Below, piece after piece: positions 52,284 to 60,188 of a stretch of DNA of 64,000 nucleotides. How positions within the stretch are numbered: the first letter of the stretch is position 1; the number at the start of each line of letters is the position of its first letter. Below the pieces are notes generated by a model. The model saw only the letters and a program-made list of their open reading frames with translations, had not been told where the DNA came from and made no database searches. Source of the DNA: an uncultured Poribacteria bacterium (lineage in GTDB: Bacteria > Poribacteria > WGA-4E > WGA-3G); contig OX639973.1 in NCBI GenBank assembly GCA_951828385.1, forward strand, positions 3,463,200-3,527,199, read 5' to 3'. A program made the translations under genes and the position numbers.

Positions 52284-54182
52284 CTAATCATCGCTCTCCG
52301 TAGCGACCTCTGCTTCTACAGGAGTGGTGGCTTGTTTTTTCTTTTCACCCCATAGGCCGAGCCAGAAGATAAACCCGACGAGTGCGAAGAAAATGACCAT
52401 GATAATCGCTACCATGTTTACTGCCTCGCTGAGAGGCGGTGTAAACGCGTCAGGGGACGTATCTGGCATGACTCCAAAGACATGCCACTGTTCGCGTAAC
52501 CCTGAGCGAGCGTAGCCCATCAAGCCCATCAAGGAGGTAAATGTAATCGCCAAGAGAATTAACACGTATTGTGACCGGTCTGTCATCTCACCCCACTCGA
52601 TAGTCCCCGATGTCTGCGCTCTCCTATACATGAAAACATCAAGGACCGTCACTGCGAACATCACAGCGAGCGCGATCACGACCTGCCACGGGGTTAGCAC
52701 GTTGACACGAAAATCTGTCGGAACCGCAAATCCAACGATACCGATAACCACAATTGCGACCACCGCGAAAAAGAAGATAGACGAGATCGCTATGTTGCCG
52801 ACTTTTCGCCAACTCGCCGTTGGTGTTTTCCCGGAACGCCGATAGAACAGAAAACTCAAGAAGGTCGTGAGGATAACGATGTTCACAGCTGTATTCTTGG
52901 CAGTCATTAATCCGAAAAATCCGAGATGCGGATGGTTCGCGCCGCCCATAGCACTCAGTTCACTGGCAGTTGAGATTTTAGAGAGTGTCCGCGGGGTCAT
53001 CCAGATGGCGACACAGACAATGATCGCGATAATCATGTACGGACGGTAGCGCGCGTAGATCTCTGCCCCTTGAATCCGTCCCATGCCGGACCAGAGGTAG
53101 TAGTTCGCGCCGATGAATAGGACACCGATCATTACCGCCTGAATGATAAATAGCCAAGAGAAGAGGCTGCCCATCATGTTGATGCCCATCGTGTTGTTGA
53201 ACATGTAGATTTCGCGGCCAAGCCAATACCCTGCAAACGGTAATGGAATGAGTCCACAGAGTGCTATAAAGTTTCCGGTATACCCCATCCAATCGTAGTG
53301 TGCTTTGTCCGCCTTCGTCTTGGCGACGAGGAATCGAAACGCGGCATAAGCCGCTACAATGGAACCCCCGAAGGCAATATTTCCGATCAGACGGTGAATG
53401 TTAACTGGCATCCACGTAAAGTTGTTGACGGCATCCCAAACGGTAGCCATGAACTCGCCTGTTGTCTCGTTGTGGAGCGGTATCATGGTATGGTCTGTAA
53501 CCCCCTCCATAACGGTTTCAGGGGTCAACGCCGGATCTGAGGCTAACTGTTCGTCCATCCAAGATTTCTTTCGCATCTCAGAGATGATACCGTGTTGTGT
53601 TGCCGGGCTCGTCTGATAAGTAAGCCATGAATTAGAGACAAACATAATCGCCGTGCCCCACACATTTAATAAAACACCGAGGAAAAGATGCCATCCTTTA
53701 TGCCGTCCCTGCATCTTATCCCATCCGTAGGAATAGAGGTAGAGGGTAAAGGTTTCGCCGAAAAACAGGATGACGTAAAAAATCATCGTCGGTCCGAATA
53801 TCCCGCTGAGCTTGCTCATTACTTTCGGATAGCACCAGATAAGAATGAAGACGAGGACCCCACCGAGTAAGGCCGTTGTCGAAAACGCGCCCATACAGAG
53901 TTTAATAAACTCCTGTGCCATCCGATCATACCGTTCATCCTTGGTCTTCCAACCGATAAATTCGATGATAACAGCGAACATCGGTACACCGAGGATAAAG
54001 GAGCCAAATAAGAGATGGAGCTGCGCGGCAATCCATGCTGCAGTTCGGCTGCCGATTACCGGGAAAGGGCGATATTCCGCATCACTCATGTCCTGTGCGA
54101 ACGCGGGTGCGATAGCCAACACGGCATAAAAGACGAGCACACAACCCAGTATGAGATAGAGCCTCTTTTTAGATATTTTCAT
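52284..54182 (-). CDS. CydA-like oxidase subunit I (no CydB neighbour)
   Basis: 632 residues, about nine to ten membrane helices, cytochrome bd subunit I fold. The N-terminal His (AAQLHLLFGSFILGVPM) matches the heme b595 ligand, and VNIHRLIGNIAFGGS a heme b558 ligand region. The GRQPW motif of quinol-oxidising CydA proteins is not present, and no cydB gene lies next to it. Instead it lies in a run of membrane c-type cytochromes. Such quinol-site-lacking bd relatives with cytochrome c partners are known in several phyla; whether they reduce O2 is not settled. It has an N-terminal signal-like helix. Confidence 0.82.
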   Translation of the reverse strand: MKISKKRLYLILGCVLVFYAVLAIAPAFAQDMSDAEYRPFPVIGSRTAAWIAAQLHLLFGSFILGVPMFAVIIEFIGWKTKDERYDRMAQEFIKLCMGAFSTTALLGGVLVFILIWCYPKVMSKLSGIFGPTMIFYVILFFGETFTLYLYSYGWDKMQGRHKGWHLFLGVLLNVWGTAIMFVSNSWLTYQTSPATQHGIISEMRKKSWMDEQLASDPALTPETVMEGVTDHTMIPLHNETTGEFMATVWDAVNNFTWMPVNIHRLIGNIAFGGSIVAAYAAFRFLVAKTKADKAHYDWMGYTGNFIALCGLIPLPFAGYWLGREIYMFNNTMGINMMGSLFSWLFIIQAVMIGVLFIGANYYLWSGMGRIQGAEIYARYRPYMIIAIIVCVAIWMTPRTLSKISTASELSAMGGANHPHLGFFGLMTAKNTAVNIVILTTFLSFLFYRRSGKTPTASWRKVGNIAISSIFFFAVVAIVVIGIVGFAVPTDFRVNVLTPWQVVIALAVMFAVTVLDVFMYRRAQTSGTIEWGEMTDRSQYVLILLAITFTSLMGLMGYARSGLREQWHVFGVMPDTSPDAFTPPLSEAVNMVAIIMVIFFALVGFIFWLGLWGEKKKQATTPVEAEVATESDD

Positions 54183-55082: not shown

Positions 55083-55142
55083 GATTTTTTCTCCTTTTAT
55101 CGTTTAAATTTATCAACCTCTTTAGTGGCAAAACTCCATGCT

Positions 55143-56162
55143 TTAGCTTGGAGATGTAGCCACTTTGTATTTGAAGTTAAGTCGTCTCAGTATTCTGAAA
55201 CTCTCTTGTTTCTGCATAGGTCTTTGTTTTTTCGTTGACATCTGCGTAAGATTAATTTTGCCGTTTTGATGACCGCTAATCCAACAAAGACCCCACTTAA
55301 TACTCTTTACCAAAGTCCCTTTAGTGAAACCCAAGCATCTGGTGCCGCCATATCTATGTCTGACACCCCCTTTCTTAGGAACTTCTCTGTGCAAGTTGCG
55401 CCTTTGTATAGGTATAGGTGCTATACAAAACACACTGGCGTTGTCTACAATAGTGTCACCCCCTATAGCGTGATATGCCAAGCACCAGGAGTCCACACAA
55501 TGCGCTTCAAAAGACTCCGACATCTTATCCTTGGATTTATTAAGTCCAAGCCTGTCGCGTATATCCTTTGTTTCGTAGCCTTGAATAGTTAACAAATCCC
55601 ATTTCTTGCGAATTTCACCATAGAACCACTCCTTACCAACTTCTAATGGGCTAAAAGACTGGTTCCACTTCTTCTGATATTGCTTCGGGCGTGCCTTAAT
55701 ATCTTCCACGCATACATGTGTGATTGGATACAACTTGGACAACCAATCCAATATGCGTATCTTCCAGTGCCACCTGGCACGTGTACCCGCAGGTAGCCTG
55801 TTCCTATTAGACAGATTGTGATTCTTTTTCTTTCTATTCGGACACTTACGTGAACGCCTACTGCGACGCAACTCACGCCTCTTGGCAACTTTCTTACCCA
55901 CCTTGTTATGAGCATCCGCCTGAACATTCAGAAAAGTATGCGATTCAGACTTAACCGTAAAGCCTTCCTTTTTACTTCCAGGATCAACACCCACAACAAT
56001 ATCTTGCGTATACTCTGTGGTTTCGTAGTTTAATCTGATACAGAATATACCATTACTCCAGTAAGGCGTTGCTAATCCTTTCTTGATTAACATACCTGCC
56101 TTATTCGGATGCGTAGGCATTAACACTTTACCATCTTTACTCTTGACAGGAACGAAATTCAT
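55143..56162 (-). CDS. isrB: IsrB-type OMEGA RNA-guided nickase (RuvC only, no HNH)
   Basis: 339 residues. The N-terminal PLMP-like domain (KVLMPTHPNKAGMLIKKGLA, residues 12-31) is followed by RuvC-I with D60 (VVGVDPGSKKEGF), an Arg-rich bridge helix (residues 94-113), RuvC-II with E153 (HVCVEDIKA) and RuvC-III with H221 and D224 (EAHCVDSWCLA). Only about 65 residues separate RuvC-II from RuvC-III, and no HNH motif is present, which separates IsrB from IscB and Cas9. A C-terminal target-binding-like region (residues 265-335, RYGGTRCLGFTKGTLVKS) follows. All RuvC residues are present. GGGAGG lies five bases before the ATG. In known IsrB proteins an omega RNA guides nicking of one DNA strand. 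Confidence 0.85.
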   Translation of the reverse strand: MNFVPVKSKDGKVLMPTHPNKAGMLIKKGLATPYWSNGIFCIRLNYETTEYTQDIVVGVDPGSKKEGFTVKSESHTFLNVQADAHNKVGKKVAKRRELRRSRRSRKCPNRKKKNHNLSNRNRLPAGTRARWHWKIRILDWLSKLYPITHVCVEDIKARPKQYQKKWNQSFSPLEVGKEWFYGEIRKKWDLLTIQGYETKDIRDRLGLNKSKDKMSESFEAHCVDSWCLAYHAIGGDTIVDNASVFCIAPIPIQRRNLHREVPKKGGVRHRYGGTRCLGFTKGTLVKSIKWGLCWISGHQNGKINLTQMSTKKQRPMQKQESFRILRRLNFKYKVATSPS

Positions 56163-56361
56163 CGTAACCTCCCTTGCGGGTTATATGTTGCCCCGTCGAG
56201 ATCGCAATACCAGCATTTACATAGGACTTGAGGAGCATCCTAAATACCTCTGCGTGCCACCACAGAATATTACGATATATTACTCTATTCAGTGTGTTTA
56301 TAATCATCCAACCTATAGACTCAGCTGCCGTGTTGAACAATCTCCAGACTTTAGTCTGGAG
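56163..56361 (-). ncRNA. Candidate omega RNA of the IsrB element
   Basis: The 200 bases between the right-end hairpin and the isrB start hold no gene. In IscB/IsrB loci the guide RNA is coded just upstream of the protein gene, with the guide taken from outside the element. On the minus strand the stretch has several short pairings (the CTCCAGAC hairpin at the 5' side, GACGGGGCAAC and ACCCGCAAGGG near the gene). Guide and exact ends cannot be set without an alignment of related loci. Confidence 0.45.
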
Positions 56362-56546
56362 TCACTGAATCTGCAATATATTAACATTACAGCAATTAAG
56401 AACGCAAATAAAAAAGCATTCAGTTGTCAGCAGTCAGCGAGAATCGCGGCTACAGCGAAGAAATCTTGAGCGCAAAATCGAAACTACGGGAGAACTGAAT
56501 GACTCTGCCTCAGATATAGATTAATTTTTTAAAGATTGTTTTTGTG
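56362..56546. other. Gap between the element and the small cytochrome gene
   Basis: No gene. Contains CATTCAGTTGTCAGCAGTCAGCGAGAATCG-type repeat words near 56418-56450. On the minus strand the bases right next to the hairpin would form the guide of any omega RNA. Confidence 0.4.
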
Positions 56547-57050: not shown

Positions 57051-60000
57051 TTAACGTCCTAACGAGATGAGATAATCTCGAACGAGTTGAATCTGTTTTT
57101 CAGCGTCATCGCCAGCATACCCCTCAACCGCCAGGTGTTGTCCACCGACGAGCGGCCAGGCTTGTGGCATCGCCGTTCCGCGCTGGAACGACTGCGGGTC
57201 TTTCATCCAATCAACGAGCCAATCCGGTTTGAGACGTCCTTTTGCCAATGAGAGATCGGGCCGTCCTGCCTTGTCACTTCCTTCAGGAATAACTTCACCC
57301 TGTGAAGGGTGACAAGAGATACACTGGAGCTCGTCAAAAATCTGCTTACCGACCCGCAATTCAGCACGTGTTGGGGTTGGCACTTCAAGCGTCTCATAAG
57401 GGAACGGTTCATCGTCAAGCGCAGAGAAGTATTCAACAAGCGTGGTCGCTTCATCATCAGATAGACCAAATGTCGGCATCCGTACTTTGAGTCCATAGCG
57501 GATGTCAGAGGGTTTCTTAAGGAACTCAAACAACCAGTCTGGATAGACTCTCGCGCCTTCAGCCTTCAATGGTGGCGGTGCAAGCTGCGTGGCAATCATA
57601 TCACTGAGTCCTTCATGTGCGATGATAACGTCGCGATAATCACCGCCCGCGCCCTCAATCTCGTGGCAGCCGCTGCAGTTATATTTTTTGACGAGTCGTC
57701 TACCGGCATCAATACGGTTCAATTTCTCGGATCGGTTATGGATGTAACTGAGCGGGTACTTCTCCGGTTGGAAACTCTTCAAAAGCACGGCAAGAGCCCT
57801 TGCGTTTTCTTCGTTGTCCTTAATTTGATGAAAGACGGGCATCCGCGAGGCAATCCGTCGGGTTTGATAACGCCGCGGGTCGGTAACTTTGCCGATCGTC
57901 CATCCGGTCCAACTGTGTTCAATACCTACTGTATCGCCGAAGTCAAGTTCATCAGCGAGTTTCGCGCCGAATTCGCCGAGGTCAGCACCGACCTTCGATT
58001 CATCTTCAAAGCCAGGTATTTCGTGGCAACCGAAACATCCGTAAGTTCTGACGAGTGTTTCGCCCTCTGCTACGTCCACTTCACCGATGGATTCACCCGC
58101 TGCGTTGGGAGTTGCTTGCTGTAAACTCATCAAATAGGCGACGACGTTGTCAATTTCGCGGTTACTTAACCGCAAACTCGGCATACTTGTATCGGGATCA
58201 TAAGCCTTTGGATCGTTAATCCACTGACGGAGGTAATTCGGCGTGACCTTCGCCCCGACGCTGTCCAGTGCTGGTGCAAAATCGGTACCTAAGCCATCAA
58301 CGGCATGGCACGTGAGACAACCGACAGTTTTAACAGTCTCCTCGCCTGCCTTAATAACGCTTTCAGATGTGGAATAGTTTACGGAGGATTCATCAAGATT
58401 CGCATCACTCATCGTTGCGAGATATGCTGCAATAGATTTCACCTCATCAACGATACGGAGGACATAATCGTCCGGATAGGGATATACAGTGCCATCATCT
58501 GTTTTAATCTCAATACCGTTAGCGGTTTTCGTGACAACACCTGTGCGCGTTCCACCGTTCTTGAGGTAGACGACTTGACTCATCCCCTCGGCGGGGAAGA
58601 AGTTCGGCATCGTCGTCTTTGGCAGATAAGCTTCGGGTTTCTTAATCCAACTTTCGAGCCAAGCTGTGTCTTTCACCTTACTACCGACTTTTGCAAGCGA
58701 TGGACCGACTTTAGCGATGTTTTCGATTGCACTATACCCTTCCACAGCATGGCAACCGTGGCAACCGAGGTCTTCAAAGAGTGCTAACCCTTTTGTGAGA
58801 TTCGGGGCATAGTCCACAGGTTCATCCGTTTCAGGATCTACACCGTAATCTAATTTCATGACCCCGTCATGGCACCGGCGGCAGTTAGATTCCATATACC
58901 CTTTCGTCTCTTCAGACGTTCTACCGGTATGTTCATCTAACCCGAGTACAGGACTGAGCCAATATTCAGCATGTGTTAGCGCGTGCGCGGCTTTCGCTGT
59001 CAGGGCTTGCGCCTGTCCCCCGTGACACGGTGTACACCCAAATCTATCAATCGGGTGCTTTGCGAGGAGGACATCGCGGTGCGGATGTGTCTGAAGGACG
59101 GACCGGTAGCCGGTCTCATAAGAAATCTCAACTTCACCGAAGACATCCAGATCACTGAAAGTAAGCGTTCCATTTTCTTTTAATGTATATTCGTCTGCTT
59201 CTGCATCAAACCCATCAATTACGAGGCTTTCACTACCGACCTTGACCTCGGCGTGCTTGAGGCGTTGTACGACAGGATCTTGGCCATCACCTTCGATCTC
59301 AAACGTCTCTTGTGCGGATCGTTCATAGCCGCTTCTATCGGCAGAAAAGTGGCACGTAGCACACCGATCTGCGGTGTGATTAAAATCTTCAAGATAATAT
59401 TGCGTAATGGTTCGTGTTTCACGGAAAGGATTTTCCAATAGGCTGCCGAGGAAGGTTCGCTTGATACCCCCGACAGAATTCAATTTTTCCTGCAGGCGCG
59501 CAACTTCATCATACTTGGCTTTGTCGGCTTGTAGTGCTTGAAGGGCTGCTTGCGCGGCAGTAATACCATCAGTGATCTCCGCGTCTGTAGCGTTATATTT
59601 CAGTGCGATGAGGTAAGTACTAAGTGCCTGTCGTGGGTCGTTATTGGTTTGATAGAATTGCGCCAAGTCCTTGTTAGCATCAGCAAAAGTTGCCTCCGCT
59701 GCCAAGACAGCCTCCGTCAGCTCGCCTTCAATACGCGATTCAAGTTCAGCTAATTTCTCTTGCCACTTGTCAACCGTCTCATTACGTCTACCTTTTGCTT
59801 CGTGGAGACTATGCTGATACTTATAGTTGATCGCGTCCGATTCACTCTGTCGAAACTTGCGCGCCTGCAATGCTTCCTCAAGTGTAACGTGAGCGTTCCG
59901 TACGGCTTTAGTCAACCTACCCAATTCTTTCGCATCGGGTTCTTGAGGCGTGGAAAGTTCTGGCAAAGCCAACTTTGCGTTTTCTAATTCCGCGTGTGTT

Positions 60001-60188
60001 TTCTCATATTCATACTGATAAAACTGCTGCTGGATTTGCTTCCATGGGCGGCGGGTGATCATCTCACTCCAGAACCCCCATAAGGTTACGAGTCCTAACA
60101 GTCCGGACAGAATAAAGAACAAAGCAGAATACGATTTATTTTCAGCAGGAATTTCTTTTTTGTTCCTCACGAACTTTACTCCCTCCAT
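57051..60188 (-). CDS. Octaheme membrane-anchored cytochrome c of a bc-type complex
   Basis: 1045 residues. One N-terminal membrane helix (ALFFILSGLLGLVTLWGFW), then about 200 charged, coiled-coil-like residues, then eight heme-binding CxxCH sites: CATCH, CTPCH, CRRCH, CHGCH, CLTCH, CFGCH, CSGCH and CISCH. The last four belong to class I cytochrome c domains with typical P-x-Met tails (TTMPNFFP, TSMPSLRLS, RMPTFGLS, TAMPQAWP). It follows the cytochrome b and subunit IV genes, so it probably replaces cytochrome c1 or f. ATG at 60188; a GTG at 60170, eight bases after GGGAG, is as good. Hemes are attached in the periplasm. Confidence 0.88.
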   Translation of the reverse strand: MEGVKFVRNKKEIPAENKSYSALFFILSGLLGLVTLWGFWSEMITRRPWKQIQQQFYQYEYEKTHAELENAKLALPELSTPQEPDAKELGRLTKAVRNAHVTLEEALQARKFRQSESDAINYKYQHSLHEAKGRRNETVDKWQEKLAELESRIEGELTEAVLAAEATFADANKDLAQFYQTNNDPRQALSTYLIALKYNATDAEITDGITAAQAALQALQADKAKYDEVARLQEKLNSVGGIKRTFLGSLLENPFRETRTITQYYLEDFNHTADRCATCHFSADRSGYERSAQETFEIEGDGQDPVVQRLKHAEVKVGSESLVIDGFDAEADEYTLKENGTLTFSDLDVFGEVEISYETGYRSVLQTHPHRDVLLAKHPIDRFGCTPCHGGQAQALTAKAAHALTHAEYWLSPVLGLDEHTGRTSEETKGYMESNCRRCHDGVMKLDYGVDPETDEPVDYAPNLTKGLALFEDLGCHGCHAVEGYSAIENIAKVGPSLAKVGSKVKDTAWLESWIKKPEAYLPKTTMPNFFPAEGMSQVVYLKNGGTRTGVVTKTANGIEIKTDDGTVYPYPDDYVLRIVDEVKSIAAYLATMSDANLDESSVNYSTSESVIKAGEETVKTVGCLTCHAVDGLGTDFAPALDSVGAKVTPNYLRQWINDPKAYDPDTSMPSLRLSNREIDNVVAYLMSLQQATPNAAGESIGEVDVAEGETLVRTYGCFGCHEIPGFEDESKVGADLGEFGAKLADELDFGDTVGIEHSWTGWTIGKVTDPRRYQTRRIASRMPVFHQIKDNEENARALAVLLKSFQPEKYPLSYIHNRSEKLNRIDAGRRLVKKYNCSGCHEIEGAGGDYRDVIIAHEGLSDMIATQLAPPPLKAEGARVYPDWLFEFLKKPSDIRYGLKVRMPTFGLSDDEATTLVEYFSALDDEPFPYETLEVPTPTRAELRVGKQIFDELQCISCHPSQGEVIPEGSDKAGRPDLSLAKGRLKPDWLVDWMKDPQSFQRGTAMPQAWPLVGGQHLAVEGYAGDDAEKQIQLVRDYLISLGR

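What the first reader, a model, noticed from the sequence alone, without database searches (positions are those of the whole stretch)
55143..56162. IsrB-type OMEGA nickase inside a respiratory gene cluster
The protein has a PLMP-like N-terminus, a bridge helix and all three RuvC motifs (D60, E153, H221/D224), but no HNH between RuvC-II and RuvC-III. That is the IsrB plan. All catalytic residues are kept, so it may be active. IsrB members are fewer than IscB or TnpB, and one in this lineage, placed between cytochrome genes, would be a useful new orthologue.
Basis: partly seen in the sequence, partly recalled or inferred. Interest (0 to 1): 0.85.

Follow-up and report, generated by a model that had tools for sequence, protein, structure and literature searches.

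The report
Mobile RNA-guided nickase, altered target motif
This is an intact, small RNA-guided DNA-nicking gene (IsrB) on a 1.26 kb jumping element in a Poribacteria genome, and its relatives suggest that one amino acid and two bases of the element's own end changed together to give it a DNA landing motif not reported for this enzyme family in the papers I could read.

Summary
Confirmed: the 339-aa ORF at 55143-56162(-) is IsrB. Its best PDB match by sequence and by fold is 8DMB (DtIsrB). It has RRXRR/PLMP, no HNH, and D60/E153/H221/D224 are invariant in 60 relatives. The whole unit is a 1256-bp non-autonomous IS200/IS605-type element (55114-56369): a 207-nt omega-RNA scaffold (23 of 33 base pairs with compensatory changes; HEARO-like in relatives), isrB, and a right-end hairpin. 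It is one of 8 copies in a Poribacteria genome; genus members carry up to 18. Orthologous loci show the empty site, in the promoter/5' region of a respiratory-cluster gene. The unexpected part: about 120 Poribacteria elements show a two-residue code. At DtIsrB positions 323/326, Arg + Gln/Thr goes with NTGA, Arg+Arg with ATGG, Gln+Leu/Phe with ATAA, Gln+Arg with ATAG. Bases 3-4 of the motif also equal the reverse complement of two bases in the right-end hairpin, where IS605-type transposases keep a DNA guide. The window element is of the ATAA class; its end resembles that of resident tnpA-tnpB elements that also sit at TTAT. The family is known; the predicted NTAA/NTAG motif class and its co-evolution with the transposon end look new. 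Nicking, motif and trans-mobilisation are inferred, not assayed.

The parts
55114..56369 (-). complete IsrB element, 1256 bp, non-autonomous (no tnpA inside)
   Evidence: ends set by near-identical copies L006-L008 with different flanks, by alignment with 79 elements and by empty sites
55143..56162 (-). isrB, 339 aa: PLMP/RRXRR, RuvC-I D60, bridge helix, RuvC-II E153, RuvC-III H221/D224, C-terminal TAM-interacting domain; no HNH
56163..56369 (-). omega-RNA scaffold, 207 nt (5' end at 56369), ending in a hairpin-like stretch that carries the isrB Shine-Dalgarno sequence
   Evidence: alignment A3; 23 of 33 pairs with changes on both sides, covariation score 0.389 vs 0.152 shuffled; the homologous interval L001:1289-1491 matches HEARO RF02033 over the full model, E=8e-5, below gathering
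56370..56389 (-). predicted guide: 20 nt of host flank just 5' of the scaffold, TAATGTTAATATATTGCAGA
   Evidence: position by analogy with DtIsrB (PMC9581776); its 18-nt core occurs exactly once in the own genome, plus one 2-mismatch site
55110..55113 (-). target-adjacent motif, ATAA on the isrB strand (TTAT on the + strand)
   Evidence: sequence; empty site GCAGA|ATAAATTTAAACC in L149 and L152; same junction logic for L162 and L099
55124..55164 (.). right-end hairpin (the side where tnpA-bearing elements have their left end); overlaps the isrB stop codon
   Evidence: z=14.8 against the left end of resident tnpA-tnpB element L011 and z=18.2 against IsrB element L099
55129..55133 (+). putative transposase DNA guide CAAAA (isrB strand TTTTG); two of its bases are complementary to TAM bases 3-4
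   Evidence: covariation over four TAM classes
55224..55226 (-). codon of Gln313, equivalent of DtIsrB Arg323 (reads TAM base 3)
   Evidence: profile alignment to 8dmb and family alignment; a one-residue deletion next to it makes the column slightly ambiguous

Best explanation
This is an intact, non-autonomous IS200/IS605-type element whose only protein is the RNA-guided nickase IsrB. Steps, each marked: (1) a transcript entering from the left flank would give an omega-RNA whose 5' guide is host flank (inferred from DtIsrB). (2) IsrB binds it and nicks sites matching the flank and followed by the motif on the right (inferred; catalytic residues and RNA are conserved). (3) The site with flank plus motif is the locus after the element has been excised, so nicking an empty copy would favour repair from a copy that still has the element (inferred by analogy with TnpB/IscB). 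(4) The element is moved in trans by a resident IS605 TnpA; its right end and its TTAT target match those of tnpA-tnpB elements in the same genome (similarity shown, mobilisation inferred). (5) In this clade the motif is ATAA instead of NTGA because two bases of the end hairpin (transposase DNA guide) and residue 323 of the TAM-interacting domain (Arg to Gln) changed together (covariation shown, mechanism inferred).
For: PDB and fold matches to DtIsrB. Invariant RuvC residues and no HNH. Purifying selection. Covarying omega-RNA ending at the isrB start codon, with HEARO matches in relatives. Empty sites in orthologues for the window and for related ATAA elements at dxs and yebC. Residue/TAM table: R323 with non-Arg 326, NTGA 91 of 94; R/R, ATGG 9 of 10; Q/L or Q/F, ATAA 10 of 10; Q/R, ATAG 3 of 3; window trio, ATAA 3 of 3. 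The switches are spread over the tree, not one event. End-hairpin dinucleotide is the reverse complement of TAM bases 3-4 in all four classes. DtIsrB R323 contacts TAM G3, Q326 contacts A4, and Q326R accepts TGG (PMC9581776). Ends shared with resident tnpA-tnpB elements L011 and L016.
Against: No assay was possible: nicking, TAM and mobilisation are inferred from sequence. The window protein has a one-residue deletion beside the TAM-reading residue, and its close relative L161 has His there but the same ATAA. Element ends are ambiguous for a few members (the window could be read as TTGA but for the empty-site length; L104 could be read as ATAA). Exceptions: L079 AGGA, L119 ACAA, L235 ATGG, L177 ATGA. 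Window relatives mostly read ACAA at the empty site; only L149 and L152 read ATAA. Rfam does not detect the window's own omega-RNA even at relaxed threshold. No consensus sigma-70 promoter was found that would make the guide.
Confidence: 0.83

Rival explanations
1. The element is an ordinary NTGA-type IsrB whose right flank reads TTGA (ending ...GAGG|TTGATAAA), so there is no TAM shift in the window copy.
For: The four bases TTGA do occur at 55116-55113 on the isrB strand, and TTGA is the DtIsrB motif at 60 C (PMC9581776).
Against: The empty site in relatives is three bases too short for this: GCAGA followed directly by ATAAATTT or ACAAATTT. In L162 the junction CATAGG|ATAAAAAAAC matches the uninterrupted CATAGGATTAAAAAAC of L385 in length. 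The elements L161, L162 and the window share [AT]TG just before ATAAA although their flanks differ. The end-hairpin dinucleotide is TT, as in all ATAA elements.
Confidence: 0.12
2. The element is decaying or catalytically silent and is kept only as a passenger, or IsrB acts as a programmable binder (TldR-like) that represses promoters instead of nicking.
For: Not every copy in the genome is intact (L003 is broken). The predicted guide overlaps a conserved AT-rich promoter-like stretch.
Against: RuvC residues are invariant in 60 relatives, dN/dS is about 0.1, and the omega-RNA covaries. TldR-type repressors have lost their RuvC catalytic residues (own knowledge); here all are kept.
Confidence: 0.1
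3. The residue/TAM association is only shared ancestry: each TAM class is one clade, so the residue change is a hitch-hiker.
For: The ATAA elements fall in one to three groups on the tree.
Against: Several co-switches are nested or independent: ATAG (Q/R) arises inside an ATGG (R/R) clade; L226 (R/L, TTGA) lies inside an ATGG clade; L099 (Q/L, ATAA) is sister to L192 (R/R, ATGG); four of four residue combinations give the four expected motifs. By eye, distant viral IsrBs with Arg or Lys at 326 abut [AG]TGG. The same two contacts are seen in the DtIsrB structure (PMC9581776).
Confidence: 0.15

Closest known systems
IsrB of Desulfovirgula thermocuniculi (DtIsrB, PDB 8DMB; PMC9581776)
   Same: Domain order, size, RuvC residues, no HNH, omega-RNA directly upstream with the Shine-Dalgarno sequence near its 3' end, C-terminal TAM-interacting domain
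   Different: 29% identity in the fold match; scaffold 207 nt instead of 262; predicted TAM ATAA instead of NTGA/TTGA; Gln where DtIsrB has Arg323
Other characterised IsrBs (Cw, Ds, Cs, K2: NTG; Bb: NTGG; PMC9581776)
   Same: Compact RuvC nickases with structured omega-RNA
   Different: All reported TAMs keep G at position 3; the window clade has A there
IscB / HEARO (RF02033, NF040563)
   Same: PLMP and RuvC-I/bridge-helix half, HEARO-like omega-RNA
   Different: IscB carries HNH between RuvC-II and RuvC-III; here it is absent, and the NCBIfam IscB cut-off is not met
IS200/IS605 tnpA-tnpB elements in the same genome (L011, L016)
   Same: End hairpin and TTAT target
   Different: They encode TnpA and a second protein; the IsrB element encodes no transposase

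Membership tests
IsrB | About 350 aa with N-terminal PLMP/RRXRR domain | tested here: met
   339 aa; PF14239 107 bits over cut-off 25
IsrB | RuvC split by a bridge helix, three catalytic motifs kept | tested here: met
   D60, E153, H221, D224 invariant in A1; arginine-rich helix H88-102 in the model, though at low confidence there
IsrB | No HNH domain | tested here: met
   no HNH in Pfam scans of 12 members; only 67 residues lie between E153 and H221
IsrB | Fold of DtIsrB | tested here: met
   Foldseek best hit 8dmb_P E=1.2e-22, TM 0.60-0.62, rmsd 6.8; model pLDDT 71, pTM 0.65
IsrB | omega-RNA encoded directly upstream | tested here: met
   covarying 207-nt RNA
IsrB | RNA-guided nicking of the non-target strand | not testable with these tools
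   needs biochemistry
IsrB | NTG-type TAM (G at position 3), as in the characterised members | tested here: not met
   flank and empty site give ATAA for the window; this is a property of characterised members and not part of the definition
IscB | HNH inserted in RuvC | tested here: not met
IS200/IS605-type element | Hairpin ends, no target-site duplication, fixed short motif at one end | tested here: met
IS200/IS605-type element | DNA guide in the end that pairs with the target motif | tested here: met
   covariation of hairpin dinucleotide with TAM bases 3-4 in four classes; physical pairing not tested
IS200/IS605-type element | Own Y1 transposase TnpA | tested here: not met
   none in the element; 12 Y1 genes elsewhere in the genome

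The most novel reading that the evidence does not exclude
IsrB target motifs are set by a two-residue protein code (position 323: Arg reads G3, Gln reads A3; position 326: Gln/Thr goes with A4, Arg with G4) that has evolved in step with a two-base DNA guide in the transposon end. The window's lineage thereby has NTAA (and a sister lineage NTAG) TAMs not reported before for IsrB, which also moves insertions away from start codons.
Probability: 0.7. Interest if true: 0.75.

Novelty: new variant of a known kind. Interest (0 to 1): 0.6.

Why it matters
IsrB is the compact nickase on the line towards Cas9. A natural code linking one residue to one TAM base, with matching changes in the transposon end, would show how a transposase's target choice and an RNA-guided nuclease's motif are kept in step, and would let TAMs be predicted from sequence. 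It offers AT-rich TAMs (NTAA, NTAG) in a 340-aa protein, useful for targeting, and can be tested directly by swapping one or two residues.

Tried and rejected
Rfam at gathering over the whole window and relaxed on the omega-RNA region found nothing for the window itself; relatives gave sub-threshold HEARO. One alignment call failed for a wrong reference. First automatic searches for right ends used wrong patterns or offsets and were redone (then 32). Regex reading of hairpin loops misframed some classes and was redone by stem search (then 54); malformed hairpins still give noise. Trans targets of the guide: the 18-nt core matches only the element's own left flank and one 2-mismatch site, so no second target is claimed. 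A TCAT-target tnpA carrying NTGA-type ends was looked for and not found. Consensus promoter scan was uninformative. Considered and rejected: IscB (no HNH), TldR-like dead effector (RuvC intact), decaying pseudogene (dN/dS about 0.1), a dedicated respiratory function (empty site in relatives).

Full report
What is there. The ORF at 55143-56162 on the minus strand is real, 339 aa, with an ATG start preceded by a Shine-Dalgarno sequence in a hairpin-like stretch. Pfam finds only RRXRR. The best PDB sequence match is DtIsrB 8dmb (E=5.5e-37, residues 4-297), extended into the C-terminal domain with a profile (E=6.5e-44). The AlphaFold model is modest (pLDDT 71, pTM 0.65), but its best PDB neighbour is again 8dmb (E=1.2e-22), ahead of IscB and plain RuvC. 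D60, E153, H221 and D224 are invariant in 60 relatives, no HNH is found in 12 members, and dN/dS against relatives is about 0.09-0.15.

The whole element. Three near-identical copies in the same genome with different flanks (L006, L007, L008) fix both ends. Applied to the window, the element runs from 56369 (left end, TTCAGTGACTCCAG...) to 55114, 1256 bp. About 80 elements were delimited this way in the genus and its order, most 1250-1340 bp long. The interval from the left end to the isrB start is a structured RNA: 23 of 33 consensus pairs have changes on both sides, 94.8% of cells are paired, and the covariation score is 0.389 against 0.152 in shuffles and at most 0.062 when slid. In L001 exactly this interval matches the full HEARO model (E=8e-5, below the gathering score). 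The window's own RNA is not recognised by Rfam. Orthologous loci of relatives read through the site without the element...TTAATATATTGCAGA|ACAAATTTAAAC... or, in L149 and L152, GCAGA|ATAAATTTAAACC. The insertion lies just downstream of a conserved AT-rich, promoter-like stretch of a gene in a respiratory cluster.

Host and copy number. The window lies in a 6.66 Mb single-contig genome with 8 RRXRR genes. Close relatives with names are Candidatus Poribacteria. In one search, 36 of the 60 genomes searched have a match over the cut-off, most of them in the same genus, with up to 18 copies in one genome. The element carries no transposase; 12 Y1 transposase genes lie elsewhere in the genome.

The target-motif code. 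In DtIsrB, Arg323 contacts TAM base G3, Gln326 contacts A4, and Q326R allows TTGG/ATGG (PMC9581776). The profile alignment places these at chain residues 473 and 476 of 8dmb and at the KRxxQ motif of the Poribacteria proteins (the numbering offset of 150 was worked out from the PLMP residues). Reading the four bases next to the right end against these two residues gives: Arg323 with Gln/Thr/Ala/Leu326, NTGA in 91 of 94; Arg/Arg, ATGG in 9 of 10; Gln/Leu or Gln/Phe, ATAA in 10 of 10; Gln/Arg, ATAG in 3 of 3; the window and its two nearest relatives (Gln, Gln, His, each with a one-residue deletion beside it), ATAA in 3 of 3. A few ends were assigned by hand where two readings were possible. For the window and L162 the empty-site length decides for ATAA, and ATAA is host sequence at the yebC site of L099 (for example L381). 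On the tree the classes are not single events: ATAG lies inside an ATGG clade, L226 (TTGA) inside another, and L099 (ATAA) beside L192 (ATGG). In 43 distant viral IsrBs Arg323 appears universal in the alignment, and by eye those with Arg or Lys at 326 abut [AG]TGG while most with Gln abut ATGA, with one apparent exception, L326.

The transposon end. In well-formed right-end hairpins the 3' side reads T-Y-T-C-C for NTGA, TCCC(C/T) for ATGG, T-Y-T-T-G for ATAA and TCCTG for ATAG. Its third and fourth bases are the reverse complement of TAM bases 3-4 in each class. This is where IS608/ISDra2-type ends hold the guide by which TnpA chooses its target (own knowledge). The window's end, read on the other strand, is TTAT|CAACCTCTTTAGTGGCAAAACTCCATGCTTTAGCTTGGAGATGTAGCCAC. 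The left ends of tnpA-tnpB elements L011 and L016 in the same genome read TTAT|CAAATTCTTCGGTGTCAAAACCCC...GGGGGATGTAGACACC (z = 14.8 and 13.1 against shuffles). This supports movement in trans by that transposase, with the target chosen by the element's own end.

Mechanism. Most likely TnpA peels the element out and pastes it 3' of TTAT. The omega-RNA guide (56370-56389) plus ATAA describes the re-joined donor site, which IsrB would nick, promoting repair from an intact copy. The sequence parts are shown; the activities are inferred. The guide core has no second exact match in the genome, which fits self-site targeting.

Known versus new. The family, the plan and the omega-RNA are known (PMC9581776). 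Reported IsrB TAMs there are NTGA/TTGA, NTG and NTGG. I found no report of A at position 3, of a natural Gln323, or of Poribacteria IsrBs in the open-access library. That library lacks many papers, including, to my knowledge, the original OMEGA and HEARO reports, which I could not read. Hence 'new variant of a known kind'.

Noticed in passing
L001, L002, L003, L005 and about 30 further loci: NTGA/NTGG-type IsrB elements often sit exactly between a Shine-Dalgarno sequence and the start codon of the next gene: 34 of 86, against 3.5% of 5497 control motifs; genes hit look like purD, dprA and a UvrD-type helicase by their N-termini. ATAA/ATAG elements rarely do (1 of 12).
   Followed up: partly
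L276 (G017:C2, about 221800) and L222: An IsrB element is inserted at the start codon of a tnpA gene.
   Followed up: partly
L153 (G006:C3): A different hairpin-ended element lies in the same intergenic region as the window element, just upstream of the promoter-like stretch.
   Followed up: no
L003 (G000:C1, about 4960200): An isrB copy whose frame is broken by an inserted stretch flanked by a 30-bp direct repeat.
   Followed up: no
L009, L010, L012, L013, L017 (own genome): A second tnpA-bearing family with flank TTTAAC and end guide CAAAT, so two IS605 target types seem to coexist in this genome.
   Followed up: partly
57051-60188 (-): A 1045-aa protein with many c-type haem motifs near the insertion, in a respiratory cluster with a cytochrome-bd-like subunit (52284-54182).
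   Followed up: no
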